From NCBI GenBank assembly GCA_921293015.1, contig OV121098.1, positions 14,297,016 to 14,361,015 of the forward strand: a DNA stretch of 64,000 nucleotides, written 5' to 3'. This document shows, one piece after another, positions 373 through 38,500 of the stretch. The DNA is from Phorcus lineatus (Eukaryota > Mollusca > Gastropoda > Trochida > Trochidae). The notes under the pieces are model-generated. The model had not been told where the DNA came from. It worked only from the letters and a program-made list of their open reading frames with translations, and searched no databases. The stretch's first letter is position 1. Each line of letters opens with the position of its first letter. The translations under genes and the position numbers were made by a program.

Positions 373-665
373 GACATAGTTTAGCAACGTCTCTCCACCG
401 AATGGGAATTCCGATCTCGTCACATTCCGACGCAAGCGCCTCTAAACTTTTGCAAATGGCGCCCTGCATCTCGTTCGGTTCGTCTATATGCAGACATGCA
501 TCGAAGGAGCACGCCTCGTAGTATGCATCTACTTCCTGTCGAAGTGCGTCCAAACAGGAAGCGAAGGGTCCGCTCTTGTCCTTGATCATTCCGCATTTGT
601 CGGGTTTGTCCAGAACGTTTATATTCGTTCCGCTGCATTCGATGTCTGGCTCTATGACTTGGCAG
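373..665 (-). CDS. Gene 1 exon 11: C8 domain
   Basis: Phase 2 in (acceptor CCACAG), 1 out at a candidate donor GTGAGT. Contains CGMIKDKSGPFASC and later CSFDACLH and RWRDVAKLC, the typical C8 arrangement of GPF-x-x-C, C-x-x-D-x-C and a closing Trp-Arg...Cys. A TIL or further vWD repeat would normally follow and should lie left of the window. Confidence 0.85.
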
Positions 666-3600
666 CTGTGGGATAATGAATTACGAAGAATTCTTTTTAT
701 TTCATCTGGTATTTTATGCATCTGGAACTGGTGTATGCGTATTGCAAGGCGTTGATGGCCTCATCATCTCAAAGATGTTCTTAACGGAGGTCGCTATTAC
801 TAAAGTAACATCTCCCCGCTAAGGGAGGTGTAGTCATGAAATCCTACACTAACCTCTGTTCTAATTAGAGCTCTTGTCTCGTTAGAAAGGGAGGAGTCTT
901 GTTGCATGCAATCAATGTTAGTTGTACGATCATTCCTACAGCCTTTTTCAGACTGTACACTGCACTAAAAAAGTGTTCTTGATAAAAGAGTGTCATCTTG
1001 TATGGCGATAGAATATTGCCGATTTAGCAGGATGCGTTATATTTGATTCTGATATGGAAAATACTGTAGGCCTATTTTAACATAAATGGAGTGACAATCT
1101 TTAGTCTATGTGAAAAATATTTATTATCAAACGTTTCGTATGATCGTCAGATCGAAGGTTAACTTAACTTGACTTTGTCCTTGTAAACCGAATTTCAAAA
1201 CTTTTATAACAAATGCATTGATTGAGTATTATTTATGACTCATGACATGTAACAGACGCTGTTGCCAATCATAAAGAGATATCTCGGGAAATATGAAACA
1301 GGGGAACAATTTTGAAAGTCGTGGAGTAAGTTTACATATGTCATAACCTGTGTACATACTTATCTGAGTTGTCCGGTTTGTCAGAATTATCAAAGACCAC
1401 GAAGCTGGCGCCGATGCGAGAGAACTTGGTGTCGAGGCCGCTTACGTCAGTTCCGTTCTTCAACCGGAAGTCGTTTGGTTCCCCGTCACAGTCGCCGCAC
1501 AAACCAGTCATTCGTGATTGGAACCTCTTTGGGACCTTGACCTAGAGTAAAGTATTCATCAAAGGGGTAGGATCAATGAATATAGCTTTTTCACGAATGT
1601 TTTGTTAATGCACTTAAGTATTTAGAAAAGCTTGGCAATGCCATTATTTATCACTGGTTTATAGTCCTACGAAGCAAAGGATAACAACGAAGCTAGAGAT
1701 TTAATGAGATTTACAAGAATATAGATGCAAAATATAAAGCAGGATGGCAGATTATGATGATATGATGTTATGTAAGTTTCTCACCTTAATGAGATGGACG
1801 CCATCAAAGGCTACCTCGACCCCGCACAGAGTGGTGACTTGGACGAACTGTCCGTTTACGGTCACTGAAAGTTTCCCGCCAGCACCCACAAATGGAGGAT
1901 ACTTCCGGAAACCGTTTACCTGCAACACGCATGCGCCGGATAAACAGATTAGCACAGTCCTTACGTGCCGCGTAGTCGAGTAAATTAATCATTTTTGGAT
2001 AGTATATGAATATACATTTAAAAAACAAACATCTATTTGTTAACCTGTCTAGTCAATATCAAAGGATTTTATTTTCGCTTAGTCGTATGTTGCATATTCA
2101 AACTTGAAGTAAACTTCCTTGAATAAAGCAAATGACAAAATAGCCGAAAACTTAGGTTATTTCACGAAAGGTCATTCCCGTTATAAACAAACCCGTGGTA
2201 CATTCGACCTAGAGATATTATAATGTATTATGTCATCAAGTTGTTCTTGTACAATAATGGCGTGGTGTTAACGTTTTGTCGTTTTCAGATTATACCCTCA
2301 TGAGCGTTAATTTTAAGTGGTACATCACCGGAAGACATAAATAACAAGCTATGACAGTCGAAAGTTCTTTTACCGCTAAGAGCAGAAAAAACAGTAATTA
2401 GAGGACATTTAAAGCGTTTAAAAGAAGTGCGGCGGCAATCACATAGAACGAGCTAGCAGTTTGCTGGAGTTGCCTACCCCTAACAACAGACACTGAAGGC
2501 GTTTTGCTGGAGGCGTTGCTACCTGAGCTAACGACAGTACATGCGACTATCGAGGCTGTTATCAGGCCTTAGTGGCGAGGCGAAGTAGCGAAATAAATTA
2601 AATTAAATTTTGTTCTTTGGAACATGGTCGATTTGATTCGATATCTCATTTAATCACTCACATAAACCTTTCTCCTGAGCGAGATACGAATGGTGAGGCC
2701 GTAGATGCTAAAGTCCACGAGTCTCGCCCAGGAGACCATTGTCTTGCCGTCTCGGACTTCATTCTTGACTTCCACGTTAAATCTGCAGGGGTCCATCTCG
2801 TCAGTGGACTTGGACATGGTGTACATACATTCACCCATGAAGTTGATCATCTGACCGTCATAGGTCTTGAAGTGGGGATCGCCACTAGCCTTACAACGGC
2901 AGAAATCTGAGGGAAGAGAAAGAAATGCTGTACACATTCGGTGGAATGTGGTTGTTTATAAGGCAATGGTAAGATTTTATGGACACGTTTATTAGGATGT
3001 ATGGAAAGAGAACATAATTTTATAGGTCTTTAGAAATGACCGACATATATTAAAAGGGGAGATCCAATGGGTTTTCCATTCCTTGTCTATTCTAGAATTT
3101 TCATTAAAGGGGTGTCTTCGACCCACAGAACAGCCCTTCCAGATACTAGGTTGTATGCTACTACCTGTTATGATTGGCAGCTCTGAAACATCAGCTGGAG
3201 ACTGCTCTCCCCCTGCAGAGTAAGAAAAATAGGCAGAACGTGAAAGCACAATGGCGACATTTCTTTCGCTCATGTAAGAAATTTAAGGCCTAGTGGAACA
3301 TAGGCACTCCATTTAGCCTTCTGTTGATCCAAAATAACACTTATTATCCCTTACAATTAACATGCAATCAATAATGAAAAAGTTAACTTCACATGGGTGG
3401 GTCAAATTTCATAATTGTCGGCTGGAAGCAATTCGGAAACATTGATTGTTGAAGACGGTTGCACTGGGAAAAGCTCAGTAAACATCTCTTGACTGAGGAC
3501 AAAGGGTGAGCTAAGTTTCGTTATGAAAATATATCTGTATCTACCCGCTTCAACTACAAAGCCAGGCATCGCATATATGCAATTGAATCACCATTTGACA

Positions 3601-6600
3601 TACATGTGACTTTCTTGCAATTGTAATGATTCATAGGTATAAGATGTACAATTTTCGTTTGATGGAAATGGTATTGCACACAAACTCGTTTAGTATCATA
3701 TATAAAGAAATGCCTCACCCGTTGGCAGGAGGTTTCTGTTCGTCAAGGGCTTCTCAGGGCTGACATCCAGCAGACTTTTCACTTTATCCACGACGTCGCC
3801 AACACCTCCTACAGAAACTGAGGTCGCTTTGCTCTTCTTGGGACTTTTCTTGGGACTTTTCTTGCTTTTCTTGCTTTTATTGCTTTTTTTGCTCTTTCTC
3901 TTACTTTTCTTCGGACTTCTTTTCATGACGGGACTTAGAAGCTTAGATTTTATGTCTCCTCCCAGTGATCGGATATCGGCATTTTCCATCTTGACGGAAG
4001 TAGTTCCGATACCGGCCAGGGTCACAGCGGACTTGAGAGGGCCCTGAGTGGAACCTCCAATAGAGATTCCGGTCTCGGGTTTCGAATGTTTGTGGCTCTT
4101 ACTTCCCTTCTTGCTGTGCTTGTGGCTTTTACTTCCTTTCTTACTGTGCTTGTGGCTTTTACTTCCTTTCTTACTGTGCTTGTGGCTTTTACTTCCTTTA
4201 ATACTGTGCTTGTGGCTTTTACTTCCTTTCTTACTGTGCTTGTGGCTTAATTTACTTCCTTTCTTGCTGTGCTTGTGGCTTTTACTTCCTTTCTTACTGT
4301 GCTTGTGGCTTAATTTACTTCCTTTCTTGCTGTGCTTACGACTATGCTTGAAAAGACTTGCAACTTTGGACACTCCCTTTATACCAACAGAACCTGCATT
4401 CTTTAGAAGGCTATGTCCCTTTGATACGCCCTTATGAAGTATGGATATGGCGCCCTTTATCTCACCGACCTTGGTAGACACAACCTTTCCTGCTATTGAT
4501 CCTAACCCATGAATCGCCTTCTTCATTCCTGACCTCAGACTTCCGGCTTTGATGACATCGCGAGCTTTGGATTTGATTTTCTTCCCAACACTGTGGATCC
4601 CCTTTGCAGCACTTTTTACATTAGATTGCACCTGCGATACAAGGTAATATCCATTAATGATATTAATCCTATCATCTATCCTCAAAGGTTATTTTGGTGT
4701 AGCTTTCCATGAAACTTTAGTAAGGGTAGGCAATAATTCTCGTTTCAATTTCCTAAGATGTTAAAAAATTGCAATCTACTCCAAGAAATTATCTCCTACC
4801 ACGGTTTAGCGTCTAAACATGTGACTATATGGATAGTTGTCAGACCGTTTGGAAAGGAAATAAACGAGTTCAGCCCAGTAGTTAGATACACTATTTCATA
4901 TAGAGACTTCTCGAAACAAGATTGATTTCAATAAAAAAAAGACATTTTCAAATTACCTTTCTTCCAAGGGAAAGAACATTATGTCTCACGCTTCTTCCTT
5001 TTGACCCTGCCTTCCTGGCCAATGACTTTGCTCCACTGACAGCACTGTGAAATTTAGACTTAATCCTGTGACCTAACGTCCTTGACCTCCGGAAGTAACT
5101 CTTCACTCTCGAGTGTTTGCTCTTCACAAAGGAAGCAGCTTTCTTTGCTGCGTGTTTCATGCCATGACCAACCTTCTTAGCATGTTTCTTCATCTTGTTC
5201 CCAACCCTCTTTAGAAAACCCCCTAAAGAAAGGAAAGATATGAATTTATTGGCAATTATTTGACATCTGTTCGGCTATAAAGTTAGATCATCTTCCAAAT
5301 CTTATTGAAATCAACCAGAATCTTTTATTCGTTCCTGATCGAGAACTATTCTGTAGGGGTCGTGTCAAGTGACATTTGAACTGCAGCCAATCATCGACGA
5401 GGCTTGAAATCCATCGGTATGTTGGGATATTTCTAGTAGACCTCTGATGCCAGAAAATATTAAAGTTGAAAGGTCAAATGCAAGGATACCTGACACGACC
5501 CCTATCGAGCAGTAAGCAAGGTACGAGTGAACGATTTTACCTGATTTCAGATAGATTGACCCTCGCCTTAAATGCTCTATACTGTCTCAAATTCAGAAAA
5601 CAAACGATTCACTCAAACAACAAATTTTGTTACAATGCAGCACGGCTTAATTAGACAGTGATGAAGACTAGCGTGTGTTCTTCCTTGCAGGGGATGTTTA
5701 GAACAATTTTCACTCATTGACTTACAATTCATCACAATGGTTTTGGATATTACTTTTATATAACACTTCTTTTTGCAGACATATATAAAAAGCTTCCTAC
5801 TCACATCTTTTACGTCGGACCAGCGCTTCTTGTGAATTTATTTCTGGAAAAGCAAAAACAATAAGCAATATATTTCATTGGAATTCATACCACTGAAATG
5901 ATTTTGGATTAAGTCACCATGCGTTTTCTACTCCACAATATATCGCTTTGTTCAAAACTTTCTCAATTTTAAAGATATAAACTTCAATCTTATCTTCGAA
6001 GAAAGGTTGTAAGTAAAAGTTGAATTTAAGTTGAGTTGATTAGCTGGGAATATTGCTCTCTTTAGAGAATAAAGGATAAAAGTATTATTTCAGGACATAT
6101 TCACTTGCAAGAGCTTTGATATTTATGCATCCTGCTACATCAGCGTAATTGATTCCGCTGATCAAGCTCCTTCCATATACCCTGATATCATTTAGGCCAA
6201 AAGCCTCGTATCGTTAGCTATCTAACCAGCCAATGAGACGACTCGCATCCAGCAACAGCGGTACAACCCAGATGGAAAATTCCGTTAAAGAGTAGCTTCA
6301 AGCTCCCTGTATAACGACATTTCATTGGCTTAAACAATAACAGGTGAGCACAGCCACGAACATCAGCCATACGAGGGATTTGGCTCGAAAGAGATCAGGC
6401 TATGTGGAAGGTGAGGTGAGGTGAGTTGGTGTTCAACGCCGCTTTCAAGATTATTTCACTTATATCGCGGCTGGTATATGGAAGGATTCAATTACGCTGA
6501 TACAACAGGATGATATTTCTGTAAAATGCCATTTGGTAAATTTTGAGTGAATTCTAGCGACATCAGTGAAACATGAAGTGATAACTGACCGAATTATAAA

Positions 6601-9279
6601 TAACATTATTTCACAGAGTAGAGCTATCACAGAGACAGCCAGTTCTCCTGAATTCTACTATTCAAGAGGATGATTGTTTCCCGAAACTCAGATCCATCAA
6701 AAATACGTATACGTGTACATAAAAGTTGAAAAATGGCGTATAAATTGTGGAATGAATGTTAAGTATGTAAATTCAGTAAGTTTGATAACCAATAGAATAG
6801 GAGGCAGTTCAGTTATGATAAATGGAAAGAACAAATGTAAAATTGCTAGAAATGGTCGTAAGGTTTAAATCAGTTCGTTGAAGGAGCCTTGGTGTCGAAA
6901 TTCGTTTTCAAAGAAATGAATGCTTCGAAGTACGGCAAGGTATGGACGGCTGTCTATCGTTGGAGTCATTTAGCGTATCTTCCATGAACAAATGCCTTAC
7001 CTCGCTTTAGCCGATGGCCAGTGTCCAGAGGTTCATGACGAAGCGCCTCTATGATAAAAATAAACGACAAAGACAGTTTGAACGATGTTTTATATGACGT
7101 GTAAAATAACATTGCTTATTGGGTTTTTAATTCTGATTTGTTGGTTTCAAAATTTTCAATGGGCTTGATAAATACCAAAAAATTGTCAAGAGCAAAAGAA
7201 CGCTAAATGATATATCATTATTACTTTAATCACCCAAAAAAAAGAAGAATGTTTTCTATATCCCCTATTATTCGTGCGTTCTCAAAATTTACAGGTATCT
7301 TTGACGTTTTCCAAATGTCGCTTCCCCTAGATATCGCTAATCTTTCTCGATATCATTTAGTTTTATCCAATTATTTTATACTGGCTAATGTTTACCAATT
7401 TGCCACCGGTTTCTTTCGATTGCAATTCCGATGGCACGATCTCTCAAAACTAATGTCTTTATGTAACACTGATTACATGACTGGCTCAATAGTCTAGAAT
7501 ACGTCTAAGATTTGCTCTTGAGATATGAGTTTTATAAATATATATCATCTCAAAATAACATATTATTAATGTACGATTCCATCACTATGAGTGAATTTTC
7601 GGTACCGCGGGTGCGCTGGTTCTTAAGTATGATATGAGGAACTATAACATTACAAAATCACTCTTACTGCAAATCCCAATTGTATCACATTCTCATTTAC
7701 TCTTCACTCGGGGCGGGATAGCGCAGTGGTTAGCAGGAGCTCCGTGGTTCGAATCCCGCCAGGGGCTCGGCAACTTTTTCTGCAGTAGAGAACTGTTCTA
7801 CACGCAGTCAGGTTTGGGTGCAATGCTACACTGAAATTCAGCGCAGAACCACCCATGGTTCGCTTGGTTCTATATGACATATTGCATTAGATATGGTGTA
7901 ACCCATTAGCAAGTTTTACACCGTAATATTCCTTGATTCACACCTTCTGCGATAGTACAAATTATTGTACATTTTAGGTTGAGACCAAAAAGGACCCCCA
8001 GATGCAAGCAATACCGCCAGCACTGACGATACCATCTCGCCCACCACGATTTACCATTTGTTCACCATCATCGAGGACATGTATTATAGTTTTATAACGA
8101 TCGCATATTGCAAGATATCTCTACTAACGTTTGCTTACGGCTCTGGCAACTTCACCGCTTTCAGCATCATCCCTCTTCCGTCTCTGCACAGCTGTAAAAT
8201 AATAAATAATTATTTTAATTGAGAATGAGCGCAATTATTACATCTTTACAACGATAAAGATATAACTGTTGAACTTCTTACAAATTTTACAAACGCAAAA
8301 TGTTATTCATTAGAAGTTTAAGTGCGAACTCTAGCTGTTTTGGCCTACCAACCTTACAGTGGAAAGGATTTTATGACTGTTCTACTTTTGTAAGAGGTAT
8401 TAGAAGTTCAAAACATTATCAAAGACATACTAAAAATTTAGGCAATTTCAGATACGGAACACTCCTTGCAGTGTCACTCGTTGAAGCGCTGTCTGAACTT
8501 TTAAGTTACTTTAAGTTATTCGTAAGGACGATAATGATAGATAATGTTTTAACTTCTCGTTGACACGGATCAAATTATGCGTAACAACACAATGTTAGAT
8601 TGAATAGCTAATAATTGATTTGATTTCAATGAGATTGTAGCCATTGAGGCTGCAAATTTTGGTCATTGGAATAAATTCAAAATTTGAAAATTGCCGATAT
8701 CGTAGCCCATGGGGAATTAAAGGAACGTTGCCTGACACCAATGCGCAAACGGCAAATGTTAATTTTTCAATGCAAGAAACATTTTAACAATTGTAGTAAT
8801 TTTTTTTTACATATACCAGGTTATGTGTGTCTCTTTTATGTTCTCTTATGTTTGTGAATCGCGAGGCAGGTCTAAAGTCGTTTGGGACCAATTTCCTATT
8901 ATCTTGATCTCTATCTAGGCGGTATCTAGGCGGTATTTTAATCTATGTCAAGTGTGAAGTAATAGATATTTCAAGACCCCCAAAAACACAATGAACTAAA
9001 CATAGTAACGAATTTTCTTTAACCGATAAGAATTCGGACATACGTTGATAATGACTCACTTTCTCCATTAATTTTTCTATTACCTAAATGTAAATGTCAC
9101 AACGTTCGCCCAACAGGAACCAGATTTTGTTATCATAGAAAAGAATGAACGGGCGTCTTATAATTTAAAAAACATTACTGAACATATTTTGAAAGCTTGC
9201 GAAAAGTTCTAATGTACGTACCAGCACCGAAGGCGAGCCCTATACTCAGAGCTAAAGCTAGTAACACTTCGGTCCTCAT
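373..9279 (-). CDS. Gene 1: secreted polycationic preproprotein with furin sites, KHS repeats, vWD and C8 domains (11 exons, 3' end outside window)
   Basis: Eleven exons join in phase to give about 759 residues before the model leaves the window. Order: signal peptide (1-19); RRKR at 23-26, RLKR at 49-52, RRKR at 62-65; a very basic Lys/His/Ser/Ala region (66-458) with eight 10-11 residue repeats at about 249-338 and a Lys/Ser block at about 391-422; a short acidic linker (459-474); a vWD domain (from about 477, GDPHF at 483-487, GLCG at 614-617); and a C8 domain (from Cys686 to Cys759). Family knowledge: vWD-C8 modules assemble secreted, disulfide-linked polymers such as mucins and gel proteins. 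Inference: the signal peptide and furin sites imply secretion and trimming, releasing a strongly cationic chain that may be tethered to or stored with the vWD part. Possible roles are antimicrobial, adhesive, mineral-binding or mucus-associated; none is proven. I do not recognise an orthologue. The exons and domains are well supported, the function is not. Confidence 0.8.
1360..1541 (-). CDS. Gene 1 exon 10: end of vWD domain
   Basis: Phase 0 in, 2 out (acceptor CTCTAG, donor GTATGT). Contains MTGLCGDCDGEPNDF, equivalent to the conserved GLCGxxxGxxxxDF of vWD, with the CGxC cysteine pair, and an acidic C-terminal stretch. Confidence 0.88.
1785..1919 (-). CDS. Gene 1 exon 9: middle of vWD domain
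   Basis: A 45-codon exon, phase 0 in and out (acceptor TTGCAG, donor GTGAGA). Encodes VNGFRKYPPF and the following beta strands with a cysteine in VTTLCGVEV, as expected for the central part of vWD. Confidence 0.85.
2662..2906 (-). CDS. Gene 1 exon 8: start of vWD domain
   Basis: Phase 1 in, 0 out (donor GTGAGT). Begins DFCRCKASGDPHFKTYDG, which carries the vWD signature GDPHF-x-T-x-DG followed by the F-x-G-x-C-x-Y strand. The end (RKVY) joins to VNGF of the next exon, matching the usual vWD order. Confidence 0.88.
3165..3212 (-). CDS. Gene 1 exon 7: short acidic linker
   Basis: A 48-base symmetric exon, phase 1 in and out, encoding GGEQSPADVSELPIIT. Acceptor TACTCTGCAG, donor GTAGTA (weak). 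Since it is symmetric the frame also works without it, so it could be an alternative cassette. Confidence 0.6.
3719..4631 (-). CDS. Gene 1 exon 6: basic helix-like segments, KHSKKGSK repeats and Lys/Ser block
   Basis: A 913-base exon (acceptor TATCGCAG, donor GTGAGG, phase 0 in, 1 out). It encodes 304 residues: about 94 residues of Gly/Lys/Ile/Val-rich segments that look amphipathic, then eight repeats of KHSKKGSK plus SH or LSH, then a Gly/Ser/Thr linker, then a Lys/Ser-Pro block, and a short tail. The repeats use nearly the same codons, so they spread by recent unequal exchange. The Leu/Phe-rich frame on the opposite strand is a shadow of this repeat. Lys/Ser/His repeats occur in proteins that bind silica, phosphate, metals or polyanions; which applies here is unknown. 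Confidence 0.85.
4087..4350 (-). repeat. Coding tandem repeat, 30-33 bp unit, eight copies
   Basis: Within gene 1 exon 6. Units encode KHSKKGSKSH (30 bp) or KHSKKGSKLSH (33 bp); one unit has Ile for Lys. Length differences are whole codons, so the frame is kept. Confidence 0.9.
4957..5222 (-). CDS. Gene 1 exon 5: cationic helix-like region directly after the RRKR site
   Basis: Phase 1 in (acceptor CTTTAG), 0 out (donor GTAATT). The 89 residues start WGFLKRVGNKMKKHAKK and continue with Lys, Arg, His, Ser and Ala and almost no acidic residue. An aromatic start followed by periodic Lys and hydrophobic residues right after a processing site resembles linear amphipathic antimicrobial peptides, but this is only a resemblance. 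No cysteines, so it is not disulfide-stabilised. Confidence 0.8.
5805..5843 (-). CDS. Gene 1 exon 4: propeptide with third RRKR site
   Basis: A 39-base exon between a TTTTCCAG acceptor and a GTGAGT donor, phase 1 in and out. Encodes EINSQEALVRRKR, so a third furin-type site falls at the exon's end. The next codon, split by the intron, is Trp, which begins the basic region. Confidence 0.72.
6409..6489 (-). repeat. SINE 3' tail fragment, reversed
   Basis: Begins with GGTGAGGTGAGGTGAGTTGG and continues with the reverse complement of the tail seen in the full SINE at 11444-11756. Lies in gene 1 intron 3. Confidence 0.7.
7001..7046 (-). CDS. Gene 1 exon 3: propeptide with RLKR site
   Basis: Donor GTAAGG. 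The acceptor offers two AGs two bases apart; only the inner one (TCATAGAG) keeps the frame open. Phase 0 in, 1 out. Encodes ALRHEPLDTGHRLKR, ending in a second dibasic (RLKR) processing site. A 46-base exon of this kind is supported mainly by phase and by the recurring motif. Confidence 0.7.
7710..7872 (+). repeat. tRNA-derived SINE, truncated
   Basis: A-box TAGCGCAGTGG and B-box GGTTCGAATCC, but about 17 bases of the anticodon side are missing and the 3' tail is cut. Same family as 11444-11756; lies in gene 1 intron 2. Confidence 0.8.
8139..8191 (-). CDS. Gene 1 exon 2: propeptide with RRKR site
   Basis: Flanked by a pyrimidine-rich acceptor (ATTTTACAG) and donor GTAAGC. Phase 1 in, 0 out. 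Encodes AVQRRKRDDAESGEVARA, with a furin-type RRKR followed by an acidic stretch. Too short for ordinary ORF finding; supported by both splice sites and by phase continuity. Confidence 0.75.
9222..9279 (-). CDS. Gene 1 exon 1: signal peptide
   Basis: The exon starts at ATG (9279-9277) and encodes MRTEVLLALALSIGLAFGA, a typical secretory signal: short basic n-region, Leu/Ala hydrophobic core, small residues at the end. It ends in phase 1 at a strong donor (GTACGT read on the minus strand). The phase fits the next exon. Confidence 0.8.
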
Positions 9280-14101: not shown

Positions 14102-15505
14102 AACTCTTCAAAAAAAGAAACTTGACATTCATGCGAAATTGATTTTTTCGAAACGGGTAAATTTTTTTCATGATACATACCTGTAATTTAAAGTAAGGCT
14201 TGCTCAAAAGTGTAAATTTACCAAAAACAATGGCCCCAAAAGTTTACGTTGTGTTCAGGGACGAAAACGAGCGATTCGTACAAATGCATTTTCTGCCAAA
14301 GCACGTGCAGCATGGGATCATGAAGGTTTACATGCAGACACGTCTGCTTTAGGGGAATAAAAAGCCATATCAGCCGCTGCTCATTCAGACTACACAACAT
14401 CGGTACAGCGACCTGAAGAATGCCAATACTGAACAGATCGCAACGCAACAACGCTATTGGCAGACTGCAAGCAGGAGCGACGCAGCGAGATGTTGCAACA
14501 CACTTCGGCGTGTCCAGACAGATCATATCTTCATTGTGGACCCGTTTCAACACCCGAAGCAGCGTTGATGATAGGCCAAGGTCAGGCAGACCAAGGGTGA
14601 CTACTCGGGGCCAAGATCGGTACATCCGACTGCTCCACCTTCGGGAACGAACTAGGACAGCAACGTCAACAACAACGCAGATACCAGGCCTGCGTCGAAT
14701 TTCCGACCAAAAGGTACTCAACAGGCTGAGAGAGGCTGGACTTTTTCCAGGACGACCGGTTCGACGTCCCGTTTTAACGCAACGTCATCTGGCGGAACGT
14801 CTCCAGTGGTGTCAACAGAGGATGAGATTGGCACGTGCAAGGTGGAGAACCGTTCTCTTCACTGATGAGTCCCGTTTTCTGCTTCGACGAAGTGATGGAC
14901 GAGCACGTGTATACCGACGTCGTGGAGAACGTTATGCTGCCAACTGTGTTCAGGAGGTTGTCCCATTTGGAGGTTGGAGTGTCATGGTGTGGGCCGGGAT
15001 TCGTCACGATGTCAGGACACCCCTTGTGCATGTTGTGGGTAACCTCACAGGAGTACGGTATAGGGACTTGATCCTATTGCCTTACGTTATTCCTCACGTC
15101 AACGTCCATGGTGGTCTCTTTCAGCAGGACAATGTTCGACCACATGTTGCACGTGTTTGTCAAGACCACCCCAAACACTTCCAGCACTTCTTGCAGCACT
15201 TCAACACGAAAGGCAGAACAATCCACAGGCTGTGATTGACAACTTGATTGCATCCATGGGTCGTCGGTGCCAAGCAATAATCAATGCCAATGGTGTCCTA
15301 CCCGATACGGACATTTGTGCACCCCTGTGATGTTGAAACACTTGTGCACCTGTGCATTTCAAGATCATGCTTATTCTGATTAAAACATTAACTGAACAGA
15401 GATCTTCAAACAGCGTTTTAGTTTTCATTTCAATGTTTAACTTGCATCTGTGGTCTTTATATTGAACTTTGAAAGTCAGTGTCAAGTTTCTTTTTTTGAA
15501 GAGTT
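14102..15505 (+). mobile_element. Tc1/mariner element, 1404 bp, TA-flanked
   Basis: Perfect 25-bp inverted ends (14102-14126 and 15481-15505) are flanked by TA on both sides (14100-14101 and 15506-15507), the Tc1/mariner hallmark. It contains one transposase remnant. Confidence 0.92.
14420..15339 (+). pseudogene. Tc1-like transposase, internally deleted and frameshifted
   Basis: The open part (14420-15235, 271 residues) begins with a paired helix-turn-helix DNA-binding region (RDVATHFGVSRQIISSLW) and a GRPR AT-hook-like motif. The catalytic core keeps the first Asp (FTDESRF) and second Asp (FQQDNVRPH). The third acidic residue and its PDLNPIE-type context are missing. A different frame (about 15217-15329) carries the family's C-terminal end (VIDNLIASMGRRCQ). 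A short deletion that also shifts the frame therefore removed the last catalytic residue. It cannot be an active enzyme. Confidence 0.88.
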
Positions 15506-23500: not shown

Positions 23501-26500
23501 AGTAAAAAAGTCAAGAAACAAAGCTACCTGCCTCCCCGAAACCAGTCAGGGAAAATGAGCGAGCTTTCGAGTTAATTGGTATCGCTACAACAATCAGCTT
23601 CTGAGATGACAGGCCGAGGTGTTTAGCCGCGAAGAGTTTCCAGGTGTTATGAGTTGATTGGACCAACATACACTATTTTTCGCAAATAAATTTTGCTAAA
23701 ATTGATCGAATTATCATGAAATTCCCTTTCTATTATCAAGAAAAAATTCTTGCTTCATATGATAAGAACAATCTTGACAATGGGTCAATATTACTTTGTA
23801 TCAAAGTCACGTCACTTTTGACTTTCGCTGCGACAACTATAAGAAATAGATTTCCAAAAAAGTGTTGAGACTCAAAGATTATGAATGGGTTTTACGTTTT
23901 AAAATTTTCTCTGTAACAGGCAGACACAAACCAGAGCCCTTTGTTGTGATTTGATATATGATAAAATGTAACTAGACGCCAATAAGTCTGATTAAATCGA
24001 CCATGTTTCAAGGAATAAAATGTATTAAAGATTCACTCTGGTGGGATTCACCCTATGTATATAGAGAGCTTTCCTCTCCACAGATGTCTGAAAGCAGCCT
24101 CACTACTCGCACGTTCAGATGTAAACTAGCCAATGACAAAGACTCTGGAAAAAGCCTTTTGAATCAGTATCAAGGGCGAGTAACTCTCATGTATCATTTA
24201 TTAACTTTAATTCCTGATTGATTAGTCTGGTGATGATTGAGTTTTATCATCCAAAACTGTGTTCAACAGGAGATATTGCTTGTGGAAGATCAAGCGATAT
24301 CTCGTTTGATTGTAGATTTTAACAATGCCCTGTTACAGTCAAGTTCACGACATCGCAATTGTTTTACATCATCAAGTAATGACATCACAATGCTATGACG
24401 TCATAAACATGATGATGTCACAGTGCTATGACATCAGCGCAGTGAGAGTCTTAGAGTAGTGCAGTGTTCAAAATTATACATTTTTGACGGAATGGGAATG
24501 AAAAATGATTTTGGATGATAAATAGAATCTCACCCTCGTGTCTTCTGATATCAAATATATCAGCTCTCGTTGATAAAAGTAAAACTATTCTCAGCAAGCC
24601 TCGGATATTTGTAACTTTTATCAATTTGTGTTGATATATTTGTTATCAGGAGACACTTGGGTGAGATTCTCTATTTATCTGTGCTAAACTGGTGTCGCTT
24701 AATTTTGTCTGTATTGATTCAGGTTTTCTTCAGTCATTGATATTGTCAATAAGATTATTTTCATGAAAGATAACACCATATGTTCCAGCGACCTACACTG
24801 TGAATGGATCCTCGCATCAAGTGGACAGGGCTACCAACTTGAGTTTGAGACCTTTGACCTCCAGAGGTCACCATCATGCATAAATGACTTTCTGGCAATA
24901 TACACAGGAAGTGGAGAGAAGGAACAGTTGGTTGATCGCTGGTGCGGACAGGAACATCCAGAAATAATCGTTCTTTCCCAGGGGCGTATCGTCTTTAAGA
25001 GCGACGAGAATGGAGGCGGCACTGGCTTCAAGCTTAAAGTCAAATATATACGTGAGTTGACATTCAGGAGGTTTGCATAGTATTAAGAGGGTTCTCTCCC
25101 TTTGAGTGTGCAATAATAGAATAGAATAATAGAATAGAAACATTACCAATTTCAAGCATCAAATATGTCCGAGAGCTGACATGACAGTGATTTTTCATTC
25201 GTAAAGGATTCTAAATGATCTTCTATTTTATACAATTTATATTTAAAAAGTCAGTATTTTGGTAACAAATGACAAAGAGTCACTTTAATACCATATATCA
25301 TTTATGAGGTTAATAAAGAAATTAATTTAAAGGAAGGTAGTTCCACATTGTGTTTTTAACTTCCCAAAATTATTCAACCTTAAGAGTCATATATATTTGA
25401 ACACTGTAAATATTTTGATATCATATCTAGAGAAAAATATGGATCCATCACAAATTCTTTTTTCATGATATGCAACATTTCGACAATCAAACAAGGCAAC
25501 CCACCCCCAAAAATTTGGTCGGAAAACGAGCAGGGCTTTGAGTTAATTGGTTCATTACAGCGAACAACATCTGAGATGACAAGCTGAGACGAGCCTTGAA
25601 TAGTGTCCAGGTGTGAATGAGTTACACTTGCACAGGTTCTATTGTTATTATCAAGCAGAGCAACAACACTCTTTTCACAAGGGGCAGTATTTCTGCAGAC
25701 TTTGCAGGGCTAGTAAAAGTGATCTGAGAGCACTCGTTGGAAACTTGCCGCTCCAGCACTTGGTCAGTCTTCCGTAATAATGAGTTAACAACACTCATTT
25801 CACAAGCTGCAGTATTTCTGCAGACTTTGCAGAGCCAGTAAAAGATGATTTGAGTGATCTGTGAGCACTAGTTGGGAACTTACCGTTCAAGCACTTTGTC
25901 TGTCATCCGTAATGATGACCAATCTCATTGAAATCAGTCCGAAACTAATCGCTCGTACCTCGCTGCGTTTCTCGATCTGACCACGACTCCATAAAAGCCG
26001 TGTCAGACGGCCTTGACCGTGACCTTTCACTTCCAATTATTCTAACCAATCACGGGTCCGCGTACATGTCGGTTGTGTTTGATCAACAAAGATAGCGGAA
26101 AGTTGAAAATAAGGGACGCTCTGAAAAATGTTTTGCAAAAGTTTTGAAAAGATAGCATAAGAAATGAACATCATTGTTGTTGCAACTAAGATCTATCATT
26201 TTGAATTGTATGATCAGCTTTCTTACAGAAAACATAATTGTCACTTTTGAGATACACACCAGTGGCGGATCCAGGAATTTTGAGTGAAAGCGAAGGAGTG
26301 AGAGGGGGCACCCTTTGGGTCATCCATTTTACTGTCGATAATCCCCGGGGATAGAGGGTCAGGGGTCCGGTGAATCGTCAAGCATTGCACACTTCTGAGT
26401 TCTAAATATATAGCCGTATATCATTTATCAAATGCAAATGCAAATGTTTCTGTTTCTACAGTTGATTTATTTACCTGCCTTCATTCAGAAAAATACTTAA

Positions 26501-29500: not shown

Positions 29501-32500
29501 TATGACACATAGTAGACGACATAGATACTATCGATGAATTGTTACACCACTATAATATTATAAATATTGAACAAACACTATCAAGCTGTGGTATTTCTGT
29601 GAACTTCGCAGAGCAAGTATAAAACGATGTGAATGGTCTTGTGGTATTGGTTCTAGCAGACCCAGGGTTTTAAAGTTACAAGAAAAAATTTTCATTTCTC
29701 CATTGGAAATTTTAGTCAAAATCCCTTAATTTGAATGATTCTTGAGTATATTGATGTTTTTTTCGGAAACAATTTTAAAAAAGAGTCTTGAATGATGTAG
29801 ACAAATAAGGATGTATACATTTTGCTCTCATAATCATTCTAAATGGCCAGTTAATTGGAATAAAAACTAGTTTATGATTAAACCACTATTAACCAGTTAC
29901 CAAGGATAGTCTGTTCACGAATGCCTCAGAACAGAAATGGGACAATGAGATACCCATCTCTCTCTTTCCCAGGAACAACCTGGACTTCGCCTGGAAGCTT
30001 TCGGCACTCCCAGACTCTCTCCTGCAGATAGAGTACCGACTGGAGTGCGAGGGAGCCCAGTCCTCTGTTCAGGCCATACAATGTGAGTGTCAGTCTCTTG
30101 ATTTAAAGAGCCACTCCGTGAGTTTTTGGAGTCATATATGCCAAACTTAATCAATGGTGTCATTTGATCGCGAGGTATCGATTGTTACCAAAAAGACACA
30201 TTCTAAAGCTGATTGGTCTTTTGCAGTGACAAAATGAAGGTCGAACGTCGCAACTGTGATCGAAAACCGGACATTGGCGCGCGTCAAATAGTCAAGCGTA
30301 ATTTTGGAGACTTATCTAAAACAGCCAGGAGGGCAGTTAGGAGTTGATAGAGTTTGTTAGGTTATATAACTACCGTAGTACCCATGATTTTCATGGAAAA
30401 CCAGTATTTGTCATTTATATGTCTTTAAACAGCCACTCCGTGTTTTTCATTTATTATATACATATTATTTACCATTGATATGAACCTAAGTGTCATATGT
30501 GGTGATATAAAATCAAAACATCTTAACTTTACATGTCCAAAAGACATTTATAACAGGAGGTACCTTACTGGGAGAAAATAAAAACTAGGAGAGATGTGGG
30601 TTTAATGGCCTAGAGTGTGGGGGTGCTCACAGGCTGCTGAATTAGTAATAAATATGCACTTGCAGCTACCGCTGCCCTAGTAACTACCGTTGCTAGGAAA
30701 CCATTGCCATGGCGCTACCGCTGCCAGGCACTGAAAGTAAAGGATAATATTGAGCCAGGGCAACTACCGTTGCCAAGCCAACTGTATGCTGTAAAGCAAA
30801 CCCTAGTCACCTGCTGTAAAGCAGAGTGGATATACCTGATCTTTGCTGTAAAGCACAAGACCCTAACAGTGAAAATTTAGACGTGCAGCCAAATATAACA
30901 GCAGCCCACGAGCACCCCGTTACCCTAGACGGTTTTATTCCAATGTGAAAACGAATACAGACTTACCAGGATTGGCGGCAGTGAAATGGACAGCTTAAGA
31001 GAGAAGAACTGAAACAAAATATATGTATCTGGAAGAGAAGAGGGTGGGAGGGTGGGTGAAAAGAGATGAAGGAAAGTATTTACTGCTAGAATGGCGGCGG
31101 GAAGAGGTGAAGTAATGATGACGTCACGTTATGACGTAATTTTATAACGGGGGCTTTAGCTTTGTTGCGTATGCGGAGATGGAAGCGGAAGTAAAATAAT
31201 ATACACAAGGAGTTGGTATCCCTGTCATAAAGGCATTTAGCTTTTAGAACTAAATGCTATTATAACAGGAGGTACCTTACTGGGAGAAAATAAAAACTAG
31301 GAGAGATGTGGGTTTAATGGCCTAGAGTGTGGGGGTGCTCACAGGCTGCTGAATTAGTAATAAATATGCACTTGCAGCTACCGCTGCCCTAGTAACTACC
31401 GTTGCTAGGAAACCATTGCCATGGCGCTACCGCTGCCAGGCACTGAAAGTAAAGGATAATATTGAGCCAGGGCAACTACCGTTGCCAAGCCAACTGTATG
31501 CTGTAAAGCAAACCCTAGTCACCTGCTGTAAAGCAGAGTGGATATACCTGATCTTTGCTGTAAAGCACAAGACCCTAACAGTGAAAATTTAGACGTGCAG
31601 CCAAATATAACAGCAGCCCACGAGCACCCCGCCATAAGCACTTAAGTGCTACCCCACACCCAGGCCATAAGCAAATTCTCACCAGCTTCACTTCCAGGAT
31701 TTAATCATAAAGCAAATAAAATGGGGGTAGTTACTATCCTGAGAGGGGGTCCACAATTTTCCTGATGTTATTTGCAAAGATGATCAAACCCCTTCTGGAT
31801 AGGTGCACGCCATCAAAGGCAAAGAGGTCCTTTTCTCTTGACCCAAAATGGGGATGACGGACCTGTACGCCTCCAACGCTTCTGACTAGATTACCAACCC
31901 TCCTATTCAGCTTTGCTCGGGCCCTCTCTATCTTCATGGGACATCTGGCCACATGCCAGTACAGGCGGGGGAGGATGTCCGACCAAACGATGATGGTCTT
32001 TGGGAGAAGGAGCCTGATTCGCAGTAGGGAGGTCTCAATCTCGTGGAAAAGCTCACAGGCGGTGACTTGACCGAGGTCGTTGGAGCCGAGATGGATGACT
32101 ATGGCTTTCGGCTCCTCAGTCATCCTGGCTACTTGGTTGTCTACCACCTGACGCAGCTCTTTCCACCTCATTCCTCCTCTCGCCAGCCAGAGGATGTTGT
32201 GTGTGTCCAGGGCGTGACCCCGCTCCCGGCTTGCCCTCGCAAAATAGCTGGACCCGATCAGCCATACTGAAAAACACAAGCACTCACAGGAGAGAATGGA
32301 TTTTGCAGGTGAGGACGACTATAAGTACAATACATGATAATGTGATGAAACTATACATGATAGTACCATAAAGTACATGACAATGCCATAGAAATTAGCG
32401 AATGAAAGTTGGGATGCGTATGTAGGATTTGTAACACTCAGATCCCCACCGACCAAAGTGTTGAATTAGATCTGAACTTACACCCTTACATGCTGCTGTA

Positions 32501-35500
32501 GTGGCTGCTCCAATCCGGAAAGAATGGGAAGTGTAGGCTGAAGTGTCAATCCCACTGAATGCCAGGGATTTCTTTAAGACTGCTTGAAACTGATACCTTG
32601 TTAGTGGAGATTGGTCAAAGTGAATGAAGGCGTCCGATGATCCTCTTGTGCGCTTGTGCATGTATGCTCTATATGCTGCTACCGGGCACAGACTGTTGGT
32701 AGGGGAGCTCGAGATGCTTATTGTTGTACCTCTTGCCATTCGATCTGACTTGGAATGACGGAGAGTAACTAACAGCTTCCCATCTTCTATGGTGATATCT
32801 TCAGCCTGACAGCCTGCGTGCTGCCCACCAGTTTTAACCAATTCACTTACCCGGAAAAATCCGAAAAAGGCTAGACAGTATACAGCTTTGAACAGATAAA
32901 CTTCATATGATGAAGAGCATACTGACCTTAGATTGGTGATGATTACCTGTAGCAGTTCCAGTGTTATTGGTTTGCGCAGGTCTCTCCTTTCGCTACTTTT
33001 ATACATACCTTGCAGCATTTTGGAAATGACAAAATGTCCTGTGTTATCTGTCATATTATGAAGTTTGTGCCATGTGGCAATACCCGTAATATGGGTCCTT
33101 ACTGTATTGGGGGAAAACCCTCTTACAGATAAACTAGCAATGAAGTTAACTAGATGATCTAATGGTACTGGCCATGATTCTGGAATCCCATGTGCTGTCC
33201 TGAATACCCTCAGAGCCTCGACCCCTGCTTGGTAAGTTGACCATGTGTTGTTTGCTAAGAACAGATGTAGCAATCGGCCAGCCTCCCTTGTCAGATGGTC
33301 CAAAGATTGACTGGAAGTGGGCATGGTTGCTTCTCTGCTGCTGGTGCTGCTGCCCGGAACCGCTGCCACTGAAATCTCGACAAAGCATCTGCGATTACAT
33401 TGTTTGTGGTACCTATGTATTTTGCTTTAAACCATATGTTATGAGCTAGACAGAGGAGGACTAACTGTCTCACTAGGGACATGATCCGGGGTACCTTACA
33501 TGTCTGTTTGTTGATGATAGCAACCACTGCTTGGTTGTCGCAAAAGAATAATACTTTCTTGTTAGCAAAGCAGTTACCCCACAATCGTACTGCCAGTACT
33601 ATTGGGAAAAGCTCCAAGAGTGTCATGTCCTTAGTCAAACCTTTCTTAACCCATGCTTCTGGCCAGAGCCCATTCACCCATCGTCCCTGGAAGTATGCCC
33701 CAAAGCCTGCTGTGCTGGCAGCGTCTGTAAAAAGCTGCAAGTATGGGCTGTCTAACCATAGTCTATCCTGGAACACAGATACACCATTGAAATTGTCGAG
33801 GAAAGTAAGCCATATTGACAAATCTTCCCTGAGCGACTGTGTGAGTCTTATGTGATGGGATTGATGTCTTACCTTGCTGTATGCGTCGATGAATCTCCGA
33901 CAAAAGGGTCTGCCCATGGGAATGGCTCTGCACATAAAGTTAAGCTTACCAACCAGTGATTGTAGCACCTTTTTAGTCACTTTTGCTTTATCTAATGCGA
34001 GCAGTGATTTGATGCACTGGGTGACCTCGTCAATCTTACTTGCTGGTATCCTGACCTGCATGTTCACTGTGTCGATCTCCAAGCCAAGGAATGTCAAGCA
34101 CGTTGCAGGGCCGACTGTTTTCTCGTTCGCAATGGGAACACCGAGGTCTGAAAAGGCAGTCAAGCATGTCGATAGATTGTGTTCGCATTCCCCTGACCCC
34201 TGTCGCCCTCCAGTGAGGAAGTCATCGAGGTAGTGCATCAGCTGTTTATTGGGTAACTGCCTCAGGACGTGCCACTGCAAAAAGGTACTAAATTTCTCAA
34301 ATACAGAACAAGATATGGAACAGCCAAATGGCAAACATTTGTCAAAGTAATACGCACCCTGGAAGTGAATACCAAGCAATTCGAAATCTCTTGGGTTTAC
34401 AGGCATGATCCTGAAAGCAGACTTGATGTCAAACTTGGCAAGCTCAGCATTTGGTCCAAGTTGTTGAATCATGTGTACTGCTTCATCGAAGCTGGCATAT
34501 GTGACTGAGCAGGCCTGTTGATCAATATGGTCATTAATTGACTTGCCTTGTGGATAAGAAAGATGGTGAATTAATCGAAAATTATCTGCGTGCTTACCTG
34601 TCAGAGCACCCTCAATTTTCCTGTTCTTAGGGACCAAACCAATTGGAGACACTTGAAAGTTGGGAAACGGGGGATGCAGAAATGGGCCTGCCATTCTTCC
34701 AAGCTTCAATTCGGAGAGCAACTTACTTTGTACAATACCTTGCATATTTGGATCCATTGCTGAGTGAAGGTTGCTGGACCATCTTGGTGAACGTTGCCCA
34801 CTAAATTCTAAGTCAAAACCAAACTGAAAACCATGCAGAAGCGAAATAGCATGTGTAATATTTACAGTCATGTAGGTATGGAGTAAGGGGGTTAGTCTAT
34901 CTAGCACCACTGGGGTTGGTGCCCTGGCGGACAGGGGTTTGGTGCTGGTTTGGGGTTGCATTCTTAGGGGGACGTTGTCCCCCCTTTGATCGAAAGCATG
35001 AATGGGCAGGGTGGGGCTGAGCACATTTAGAGCACTTATGCTGGAACTTACATTCAGTTCTTGTACACCGTGACCTGTTGAAATCCCAGCATGCGTTTTC
35101 CCGAGTGCCTCCCGAGTACTGAGATATCCCTCGTCCGTTCCTCTCCGCCTGGTGATACCGCAACGGCTGCGGGGTCATGAACTTCAGCCACAATTCGCCG
35201 TCGATCTTCGACCACGATCTTGAAGGATCTCTCGCCATGCGATGACGGAACTGCTCATCGTAGAGTGCCCAGCCATCTCCCCCAAACCTCGCCGCCGCGT
35301 TTCTAATTGATTCCACGTAGGCCAGCATACCCTGAATTGTAGACTGAGAGCCATGTTTTATAACATATGTACTCATGTAGATATGGAACGCAGACGTCCA
35401 AGCCCCAATGCCCAAGTGCTTACTTACTTTTGTTGACGGAGTAAACTTCACGTGACCGGAAGCATCCATTTCCATTGAGAATTGGGAGTCATTATTTGAA

Positions 35501-38500
35501 TGGACGTGAGGCAACAAAGTTGACAATTCGACAAACTCACCTTTCCAGATCTTATCACGTACCGATTGCTTGATGTGAGCGTTGATGGCCTCCGCATCGA
35601 AACTGAGGGAATCCCCGCCGCTGTGATTGGTCGCGCCGACTGTGACGTCACTATGGGGGAATACCTCGCCGGGGACACTGTCAAAAGGCATACTAAAAGA
35701 ATTGCATGGATCATTATTACAAATTGGATTACTCCTCACCTCGCCTGTTGATAGCGTGGGTGGTCCTTCCACCTGATCCTGGGAAATGGACTTGTTGAGG
35801 ATAGCGAGTATACACCCCAACTGTTGAGAAATGCCGTCCATGCTGCTTTCGCTCGGCCCTGCATCGGTCGCACTCTCATTCGCTCTCATAGATCCACCTG
35901 TAGCTATTTCCGAACTCAACGTACCATCAATCAAAGAATTACAATCAATGTGTACCTGTGCCGATGGGGTTCGAGATTTAGATTTACTTTTTGTCTTACC
36001 GGTTTTCTGAGTGTTGTTAGTCCCCGATCTAGGTTGTTTGCCTGCTCCCGGTACTAGTCGATGATTCAATACTGCTTTGCGCTTGGGTGGCATATTGAAT
36101 AAAAGATCTATTAATTTGAAAAGAGATGAAAAGAGATGAAGGAAAGTATTTACTGCTAGAATGGCGGCGGGAAGAGGTGAAGTAATGATGACGTCATGTT
36201 ATGACGTAATTTTATAACGGGGGCTTTAGCTTTGTTGCGTATGCGGAGATGGAAGCGGAAGTAAAATAATATACACAAGGAGTTGGTATCCCTGTCATAA
36301 AGGCATTTAGCTTTTAGAACTAAATGCTAATATATGACAAATACTGGTTTTCCATGAAAATCTAAAAACAGCCTTATAAATGCACATAGGTGTAGATATC
36401 ACGTCAAATATACATGGATACATGGAACCTAACAAAAATTGTGAACTCCTAACTGCCCTCCTGGCTGTTTTAGATTAGTCTTCAAAATTACGATTGACTA
36501 TTTGATACGTGCCACTGTCCGGTTTTCGATCATAATTGTGACGTTCTACCTTCATTTTGTCACTGTAAAAAAAACCAATAAGCTTTAAAATGTGTCTTTT
36601 TGGAAACAGTCGATACTTCGCAATCAAATTACACCATTGATTAAGTTTAAAAGCATATATGACTCCAACAAATCACAGAGTGGCTCTTTCAAGGGGACTT
36701 TTGGAGTCACTTATGTCAATGTTCATGAATGGTGTTATCTTATCTTTAAGTAGTGTTTTTTTCAGAAATCAGATCGTAATCTTTTATCAGTTCAGTAAAG
36801 TGACAACAATCTTGTAAAAGTTGTAATTTTTTATGGAAAACCAGACAGTGGCACAATGATCCAAACGTAATTTTGGATACTTATTTACAGCAGATTTACA
36901 TGCATTACTAGTGTCAAGTAGGTCATTTAAGTAATATTCGTGTTAATTTGACACAGAATTTGGACCTTTTAACGTTTTATGGGGCCGTTTTCTGAATCTC
37001 ATTGGAAAAAAATAGATCATCATTTTGGCATTTTAGAGATAAATATGCAAGTTTATTAGGTATTTTGGCCCTAACAGAAGCCAGATGAAAATAAAAAAAC
37101 AAAATGTCCGTCCCTTTTAGGGTGTCCTCCAAAGGCTATAAATCACCTGCTGTCCTGTAAGCTATTATTCTATATGACATGATAAAGGTGTTAAGCATTG
37201 TCATGGGGAGTATTACCTTTTTTCATAAATTCCTTTGATGAAATAATGTAAGATTGTTTAAATGTTGAATTAAATGATGAAAAGAGATTTTATGAATGCT
37301 TTATGCACAATAAAAACACATGGCATTTTTTAACCAACAAAACATCATTCCTTTCGTTTGATATTAAATGTATCCTTAATGACACTGCAAACATGTGTCA
37401 AACATTATGATAAGTGAAGTTAAACCATGGAAATGGAATTTTAGCATAAGGATTAAAATCTTGATTATAAAAAATAACTTTGGAGAAAAAAACACGAAAC
37501 TGAAATCTTAAACAATTTTACGAGCATTTTTGACTAGAGTAATATCACAATGCATACCACTATCACAATAAAAACTTTTTATCTGTAATATGTGACGGAA
37601 CATTTGCAATCACCTGCAGTCAAGGTATTTAACAAAGCAACAAGTTAGGCTGTGGTCAGACCATTTTGAGAGGAATCTCCTCAATGGTACAAGTTAGAAT
37701 CCCGGTAGTAAATATTCTATAATGTTTATTCCTAGAAACATGGGCCTTTTTTTATCAGACTTGGGTTCTGCATAAAAATCCTATATTTTCACTTCAAGAC
37801 AGGTTTTGATTATGTTTTGACAAAAAACTGTACAGAAACCATTAAAATCATATGACCAAGCTAGCAACCCTGTAGTAAGCTACCTTCCCTGACGGTTACT
37901 ACGACGCCAGGGGTAGACAACTCTAATCTTTGAAATTCTCTTCCTCAGACAATGAAAACTTCACCACGCCTATCTCGACTGACCTCCTCCGACACAGTTG
38001 TGGTCATCCCTTCTACGATGTGGTGGTCAGCAATAAGACCCATGTCCTCGTCAAAGTGACCACAACATCACAAGCCAACAGTAGGAGCTTCAGGCTGGCT
38101 GTTTCAGCTGTCCCCAGTTGTAAGTACAAGATGATTGCTTATTGATGGATCCAGGAATTGTGAAAGGAGGGTTCGCCTAGTGAAAGGGTGCATTATTTTT
38201 TTAATTAACAAACATTTGTACATACAAATTTATATATTATTTTATTTCTGATAGTATAGTTTGATCATTACTTTCTCCAGATGATTAACTGTCAAAGTTT
38301 TTAATAATATTTGAATCAAATTTGCTCTGTGCCTTAGCAGCATGGCCTGTGAGAGGAACATGAGAATGATAGATGCTACTTTGTGTTTTTTCTCTGCAGA
38401 TACATCAACATGTAATGGATCAGGGGAGATACACAACATCAGCCTCTCTCAGTACCCTGTGTACCTTGTGGTACCAATCTGGGAGTATCTACAATACAAA

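What the first reader, a model, noticed from the sequence alone, without database searches (positions are those of the whole stretch)
373..9279. Secreted polycationic preproprotein joined to a vWD-C8 module
A single phase-consistent 11-exon gene links a signal peptide, three furin-type sites, about 390 very basic residues and a polymer-forming vWD-C8 module. I know no family with this order. A protease could free the cationic part from a gel-forming part, which would make this a mucus-bound antimicrobial, adhesive or mineral-binding system.
Basis: partly seen in the sequence, partly recalled or inferred. Interest (0 to 1): 0.78.

Follow-up and report, generated by a model that had tools for sequence, protein, structure and literature searches.

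The report
Snail mucin-like protein with cationic front
A sea-snail-like mollusc appears to carry a gene for a large secreted, mucin-related protein whose front end is a very long positively charged block; the gene looks real and runs on beyond the window, and it may help make mucus or glue, but nothing here shows that the charged part is cut free as an antimicrobial.

Summary
The 11-exon model holds up on sequence. All exons are on the minus strand, the 10 introns are GT/AG and phases fit; 759 codons are open. Signal peptide (by eye), three R-X-K-R sites, a 409-residue block of net charge +97, and VWD and C8 domains are confirmed.

Two corrections. (1) Position 373 is a splice donor, not the gene end. 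Outside the window follow TIL, EGF, an acidic Pro/Glu/Thr exon (net -84) and a second VWD. A probable second gene nearby has the same plan: signal peptide, charged exon, three VWD-C8-TIL units. (2) All three furin-type sites lie before the cationic block, none between it and VWD, so furin would not free it. The VWD carries GDPH, an autocleavage motif in human FCGBP whose pieces stay disulfide-joined.

The first 185 residues of the block are strongly amphipathic at 100 degrees (0 of 1000 shuffles reach it), and no second copy was found in the genome. The host is a mollusc, probably a vetigastropod. Best reading: an FCGBP/zonadhesin-like mucus or adhesive matrix protein with a tethered polycation. 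A new variant of a known kind; expression and function untested.

The parts
9222..9279 (-). Exon 1: ATG and signal peptide (MRTEVLLALALSIGLAFGA)
   Evidence: signal peptide by eye and by the hydrophobicity scan; TATTTATA about 40 bases upstream of the ATG (sequence printed; promoter reading is inference)
8139..8191 (-). Exon 2: propeptide; first furin-type site RRKR at 8172-8183
   Evidence: site at residue 23
7001..7046 (-). Exon 3: propeptide; furin-type site RLKR at 7002-7013
   Evidence: site at residue 49
5805..5843 (-). Exon 4: propeptide; furin-type site RRKR at 5806-5817, directly before the cationic block
   Evidence: site at residue 62
4957..5222 (-). Exon 5: first part of the cationic amphipathic block (WGFLKRVGNKMKKHAKKVGHGMKHAAKKAASFVK...)
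   Evidence: 28 K/R and 0 D/E in 89 residues, z 4.4 over shuffles; single long helix predicted without alignment, pLDDT 85 in the best of five models
3719..4631 (-). Exon 6: second part of the amphipathic block (4631-4344), Lys/His/Ser decapeptide repeat (4343-4080), Ser/Lys-rich tail
   Evidence: (period 30, 8.1 copies, 4090-4337)
3165..3212 (-). Exon 7: short linker GEQSPADVSELPIIT, phase 1-1
2662..2906 (-). Exon 8: N-terminal part of VWD; GDPH motif at 2872-2883, Cys four residues before it
   Evidence: Pfam VWD 2.7e-12
1785..1919 (-). Exon 9: middle of VWD
   Evidence: no Pfam hit alone; aligns with other VWDs of the locus
1360..1541 (-). Exon 10: C-terminal part of VWD (TGLCGDCDG)
   Evidence: Pfam VWD 3.3e-5
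373..665 (-). Exon 11: C8 domain; ends in a splice donor, gene continues beyond window base 1 (TIL exon at genome C41:14296166-14295967, starting 850 bases before window base 1)
   Evidence: Pfam C8 2.1e-12; donor GTGAGTTT; continuation

Best explanation
This is the 5' part of a gene for a large secreted extracellular protein of the FCGBP/zonadhesin/mucin D-assembly class, in a gastropod mollusc.

Shown by sequence: signal peptide; short propeptide with three furin-type sites; a 409-residue polycation of net +97, whose first 185 residues are an amphipathic helix pattern and whose middle is an 8-fold Lys/His/Ser decapeptide repeat; then a D assembly VWD-C8-TIL-EGF; then a polyanionic Pro/Glu/Thr region (net -84); then a second VWD.

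Inferred: in the secretory pathway furin-type proteases remove the small propeptide, exposing Trp-Gly at the new N-terminus of the polycation, which stays joined to the D assembly. If the GDPH bond autocleaves, the polycation stays on by a disulfide. The cationic block pairs with polyanions (its own acidic region, mucin glycans, mineral or microbial surfaces) while the D assembly gives disulfide-stabilised folding and association. The product would be a cohesive or surface-binding component of mucus, glue or another extracellular matrix.
For: Gene model phase-consistent over 11 exons. VWD and C8, TIL and EGF_3 in the next exons, second VWD 3.2e-26. Closest solved chain is FCGBP, whole-chain E 8.7e-159 over 6 stretches, ahead of Mucin-5AC, 5B, 2 and VWF. 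Acidic region 24 K/R against 108 D/E. Amphipathicity over the first 185 residues: mean moment 0.432 against 0.236 shuffled, z 6.5, 0 of 1000, best angle 100; the best model of each of 2 single-sequence predictions is one long helix. Probable tandem paralogue (signal-peptide exon, 793-codon charged exon with 2 R-X-[KR]-R sites, three VWD-C8-TIL units) repeats the plan, so basic and vWD exons plausibly belong together. Precedent: vWFD proteins in limpet pedal mucus, one with a polycationic tail and expression in pedal-sole glands (PMC7333891).
Against: No transcript or protein evidence was available. Tissue and function are unknown. No orthologue could be sought (no eukaryote collection), so conservation is untested. 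The 3' end is unresolved: no C8 was seen after the second VWD in a by-eye look at frames of 30 codons or more with 2 or more Cys, the acceptor of the acidic exon is weak (-2.6), and the split between this gene and the next rests on one signal-peptide exon. The cationic block has no match in Pfam above cut-off and none in PDB at E up to 10. Helix predictions without an alignment are weak evidence; the other four models of each were less confident (64-77 and 67-77). A second possible start, an ATG with a hydrophobic stretch at 7112 running into exon 3 in frame, was seen.
Confidence: 0.6

Rival explanations
1. Gel-tethered antimicrobial precursor: the amphipathic cationic helix (and perhaps pieces of it) kills microbes in mucus; the furin site before Trp-Gly creates its active N-terminus and the D assembly anchors it in the gel, or later proteolysis at dibasic sites releases it.
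For: R-R-K-R directly before WGFLKRVGNKMKKHAKK; 48 K/R and 2 D/E in 185 residues with helical amphipathicity z 6.5; 26 dibasic pairs inside the block; a sub-threshold Pfam echo of CAP18 LPS-binding domain (E 0.87, not significant).
Against: No R-X-[KR]-R site after the block; at 409 residues it is far longer than ordinary AMPs (general knowledge); no match to a solved structure at E up to 10; long single helices and the K/H/S repeat fit a structural polycation as well.
Confidence: 0.2
2. Two genes or alternative ends: exons 1-6 (or 1-7) form a small secreted cationic protein and the VWD-C8 exons belong mainly to another transcript.
For: The exon 6 frame runs only 8 codons (GEAFLYI and a stop, listed) past its donor; an AATAAA lies at 2993 between exons 7 and 8; an ATG with a hydrophobic stretch lies at 3260, before exon 8.
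Against: Exons 6, 7 and 8 have canonical sites and matching phase 1; the ATG at 3260 has no donor scoring above 2 in its frame; the neighbour gene joins a charged exon straight to a VWD exon in phase 1; such poly(A)-signal words are common here (7 A[AT]TAAA in 3.7 kb).
Confidence: 0.12
3. Biomineral or chitin-scaffold matrix protein: the polycation binds acidic matrix polymers, carbonate or silica, and the D assembly cross-links it (shell, operculum, radula).
For: Mollusc host; CBM_14 chitin-binding exons on the same strand about 70 kb away, though probably another gene.
Against: Acidic rather than basic proteins are the usual carbonate binders (general knowledge); the listings of two shell- and mucus-related searches showed no such protein (listings only, weak).
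Confidence: 0.08

Closest known systems
FCGBP (IgGFc-binding protein; D assemblies VWD-C8-TIL-E with GDPH)
   Same: VWD-C8-TIL-EGF order, GDPH motif with Cys four residues before it, best PDB match
   Different: FCGBP has 13 D assemblies (PMC10880436) and, from memory, no polycationic N-terminal block; this gene has one full D assembly found so far plus a lone VWD, and charged blocks
Limpet pedal-mucus vWFD proteins, especially P-vulgata_4 (PMC7333891)
   Same: Gastropod vWFD protein of pedal mucus, with BLAST relatives zonadhesin/IgGFc-binding protein, joined to a polycationic stretch
   Different: P-vulgata_4 is 830 aa with a short Arg-rich repeat at its C-terminus and only vWFD listed; here about 409 residues of Lys/His/Ser-rich cation lie before the VWD. 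The two sequences were not compared
Gel-forming mucins and von Willebrand factor
   Same: D assemblies and a Pro/Thr-rich stretch between VWD modules
   Different: Not the D1-D2-D'D3 start (recalled); the CGLC motif (recalled) is not met, this VWD reads TGLCGDC; the linker is acidic Pro/Glu/Thr
Furin-processed cationic AMP precursors (recalled class)
   Same: Signal peptide, short propiece, multibasic site, amphipathic cationic helix
   Different: No C-terminal end to the peptide; it continues into a D assembly

Membership tests
D-assembly proteins of the FCGBP/zonadhesin type | VWD followed by C8 | tested here: met
D-assembly proteins of the FCGBP/zonadhesin type | C8 followed by TIL and an EGF/E-like module | tested here: met
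   TIL 7.3e-8, EGF_3 1.2e-8 in the next two exons outside the window
D-assembly proteins of the FCGBP/zonadhesin type | tandem repeats of complete D assemblies | tested here: inconclusive
   one complete D assembly and one VWD without a detected C8; the neighbouring probable gene has three VWD-C8-TIL units, with EGF_3 in two (the query stopped before the third)
D-assembly proteins of the FCGBP/zonadhesin type | GDPH with upstream Cys for disulfide retention | tested here: met
   CKASGDPH in VWD1, CQAKGDPH in VWD2; cleavage itself not tested
Gel-forming mucins/VWF | CGLC (CXXC) disulfide-exchange motif of the N-terminal D assemblies (recalled) | tested here: not met
   D1 reads MTGLCGDCDG
Gel-forming mucins/VWF | C-terminal cystine-knot domain | not tested
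   3' end of the gene not resolved
Cationic AMP precursor | signal peptide and processing site directly before an amphipathic cationic helix | tested here: met
   signal peptide by eye and hydrophobicity only
Cationic AMP precursor | defined C-terminal release of the peptide | tested here: not met
   no R-X-[KR]-R after residue 65 in 759 aa, nor in the longer model; dibasic and other protease sites not excluded
Cationic AMP precursor | antimicrobial activity | not testable with these tools
   needs an assay
Gastropod pedal adhesive protein | expression in foot glands and presence in mucus | not testable with these tools
   no transcript or proteome data held

The most novel reading that the evidence does not exclude
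A single-chain block polyampholyte: a +97 polycationic helix, a disulfide-rich D assembly, then a -84 polyanionic linker and a second VWD in one polypeptide. It could self-coacervate in the acidic granule (29 histidines add charge there) and set on release, with the cationic block held only by a reducible, GDPH-latched disulfide. It would be a one-gene counterpart of the separate polybasic and polyacidic proteins of known underwater glues (recalled), with tandem genes that vary the charged block on a shared D-assembly frame.
Probability: 0.25. Interest if true: 0.7.

Novelty: new variant of a known kind. Interest (0 to 1): 0.45.

Why it matters
D-assembly proteins recur in animal mucus and temporary adhesives, but what gives each its surface chemistry is poorly understood. 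A locus where strongly charged blocks of opposite sign are fitted onto the same D-assembly frame would offer a testable genetic design for charge-driven cohesion or a gel-tethered cationic defence, and a sequence template for wet adhesives. It also shows that a window-bounded reading missed most of the gene.

Tried and rejected
Furin release of the polycation from the vWD part: rejected as stated, no R-X-[KR]-R between them. Paralogues of the basic block: none found; a query of its first 193 residues returned only itself (E 3.1e-53 and 1.3e-46) and two hits at E 5.3 and 5.7 (the tool scores only its best candidates, so this is not proof). Solved relatives of the basic block: 0 hits at E up to 10 for 193 aa and for 37 aa. 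Pfam on the basic block: only sub-threshold hits, best ApoLp-III, E 0.017, 15.7 bits against a cut-off of 36.3. Helical 11-residue apolipoprotein-like periodicity (98 degrees): not favoured, best angle 100-101 over the block, though one 44-residue piece peaks at 99 and one at 104. The decapeptide repeat is also periodic at 100 degrees (z 6.2, best angle 105), which its 10-residue unit explains without a helix. Other vWD/C8 places of the genome read for charged blocks: 3 stretches of 10 kb (C25, C19, C9), minus-strand frames of 80 codons or more only; cysteine-rich modules and no long basic exon by eye. A C8 after the second VWD: none seen by eye. Literature: nine answered searches, seen as listings and abstract starts, plus PMC7333891 (section 17 part 1 and passages) and PMC10880436 (passages); no listing showed this domain order, which is not proof that it is unpublished. 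Synonymous bias in the decapeptide copies (29 synonymous against 7 non-synonymous pairwise codon differences in the 7-residue core, 8 copies) is supportive but rests on few events. The joined model had a stop at one exon junction; the chain was rerun with junction checks (1591 aa, no stop). In the second gene's chain the part below about 14253000 is unreliable (implausible frames) and is not used.
Full report
OBSERVATION. The window is C41:14297016-14361015 of a 958 Mb, 74-contig genome. The product starts with a signal peptide (by eye and hydrophobicity), followed by R-X-K-R sites at residues 23, 49 and 62. Then come 409 residues with 93 Lys, 17 Arg, 29 His, 7 Asp and 6 Glu, and then VWD and C8, found by Pfam at 2.7e-12 and 2.1e-12. 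Exon 6 holds a 30-base, 8.1-copy tandem repeat at 4090-4337 coding a Lys/His/Ser decapeptide.

WHAT THE WINDOW EDGE HID. Base 373 is followed by the donor GTGAGT. Neighbouring sequence shows that the frame goes on: a TIL exon (14296166-14295967), an EGF exon (14295829-14295643), a large acidic Pro/Glu/Thr exon, and a second VWD (14293582-14293338 and 14292778-14292459). Pfam: TIL 7.3e-8, EGF_3 1.2e-8, VWD 3.2e-26. The acidic stretch has 24 K/R and 108 D/E. The chain with junction checks is 1591 aa without a stop. The exon chain is my own simple scoring of splice sites and codon use, not a trained gene finder. Its weak points are the acceptor of the acidic exon (score -2.6) and the unresolved 3' end.

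A SECOND, SIMILAR GENE. About 4 kb further, a candidate first exon coding MESMWIVVLLATLPLAG ends in a strong donor (14288104-14288056). It is followed in phase by a 2.4-kb highly charged exon (about 147 K/R and 118 D/E, two R-X-[KR]-R sites) and three VWD-C8-TIL units, with EGF_3 in two (the query stopped before the third). The first gene's D assembly is 30.5-36.1% identical to these three. So the plan 'signal peptide, charged block, D assembly' is seen twice side by side. This supports that the basic exons and the VWD exons of the first gene belong together. A single larger gene is not excluded: a chain through both could be built.

THE CATIONIC BLOCK. Its first 185 residues have 48 K/R and 2 D/E. 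Their mean hydrophobic moment at 100 degrees is 0.432 against 0.236 (sd 0.030) in shuffles, and 0 of 1000 shuffles reach it; the best angle is 100. Of six frames of each exon piece only the coding frame is open and amphipathic. No second copy was found in the genome (first 193 residues) and there is no match above cut-off in Pfam or at E up to 10 in PDB. The tail after the repeat is not amphipathic beyond chance (139 of 1000 shuffles reach it).

PROCESSING. All three furin-type sites precede the block; none follows it in the 759 residues or in the longer model, so furin would leave the polycation joined to the D assembly. The block has 26 dibasic pairs, so other cleavage is not excluded. VWD1 has GDPH with Cys four residues before it. 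In human FCGBP such bonds autocleave and the pieces stay joined by disulfide (PMC10880436, passages). Whether this happens here is inference.

ONE TRANSCRIPT OR TWO. Against a single gene: the exon 6 frame meets a stop shortly after its donor, an AATAAA lies at 2993, and an ATG with a hydrophobic stretch lies at 3260, without a donor above score 2 in its frame. Another ATG with a hydrophobic stretch at 7112 runs into exon 3 in frame and could be an alternative start. I keep one gene as more likely because sites and phases fit and the neighbour has the same join.

HOST. Sixteen hemocyanin beta-sandwich matches in two clusters of eight on one contig mark a mollusc. A whole functional unit matches 3j32 best. 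A 100-residue stretch of it scores best per unit with KLH1 (150.6 bits), then 3j32 (143.7), 8trz (124.1) and 6r83 (108.1). KLH being keyhole limpet and 3j32 abalone (recalled), a vetigastropod-like gastropod is likely. A ferritin comparison gave no sharper placement.

MEANING. A D assembly closest to FCGBP (8.7e-159 over the chain) and the opposite charges of two blocks (+97 and -84) fit a mucus or adhesive matrix protein with a tethered polycation. Limpet pedal mucus holds vWFD proteins, one (P-vulgata_4) with a short polycationic repeat at its C-terminus and expression in pedal-sole glands (PMC7333891, section 17 part 1 and passages). An antimicrobial role is possible (about 0.2) but nothing shows release or activity. 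I rate this a new variant of a known kind.

Noticed in passing
outside the window, C41:14288104-14253601 (minus): Probable tandem paralogue: signal-peptide exon, 793-codon charged exon with two multibasic sites, three VWD-C8-TIL units.
   Followed up: partly
outside the window, C41:14225507-14228174 (minus): Two CBM_14 chitin-binding exons (E 4.4e-5 and 5.3e-5), one in frame with a long Thr-rich stretch; whether they belong to the neighbouring gene is open.
   Followed up: partly
window 7112-7001 (-): ATG followed by a hydrophobic stretch that reads into exon 3 in frame and ends at its donor: a possible alternative first exon.
   Followed up: no
window 24718-25077 (+): CUB domain exon (9.9e-15); several further plus-strand frames look CUB-like by eye (40561, 47640, 51315, 63090) but gave no CUB hit.
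   Followed up: partly
window 32398-36198 (-): DIRS-like retroelement by content (name recalled): reverse transcriptase (7.9e-13) and tyrosine recombinase (2e-8) frames.
   Followed up: partly
window 55271-60146 (+): Second element that looks DIRS-like by eye (long frames with RT- and recombinase-like sequence); not scanned.
   Followed up: no
window 14417-15327 (+): Tc1/mariner-type transposase frame (HTH_Tnp_Tc3_2 5.7e-8 on 14417-15232), seemingly continued in another frame.
   Followed up: partly
window 7710-7770 and 6410-6480: Short-repeat-like sequences by eye: a tRNA-like box B stretch (GGTTCGAATCCCGCC) and a repeat with GTGAGTTGGTGTTCAACGCCGC, the latter of a kind recalled from molluscs.
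   Followed up: no
genome C12:7646582-7661095 and C12:16557773-16572398: Two hemocyanin gene clusters with eight functional-unit matches each, about 9 Mb apart.
   Followed up: partly
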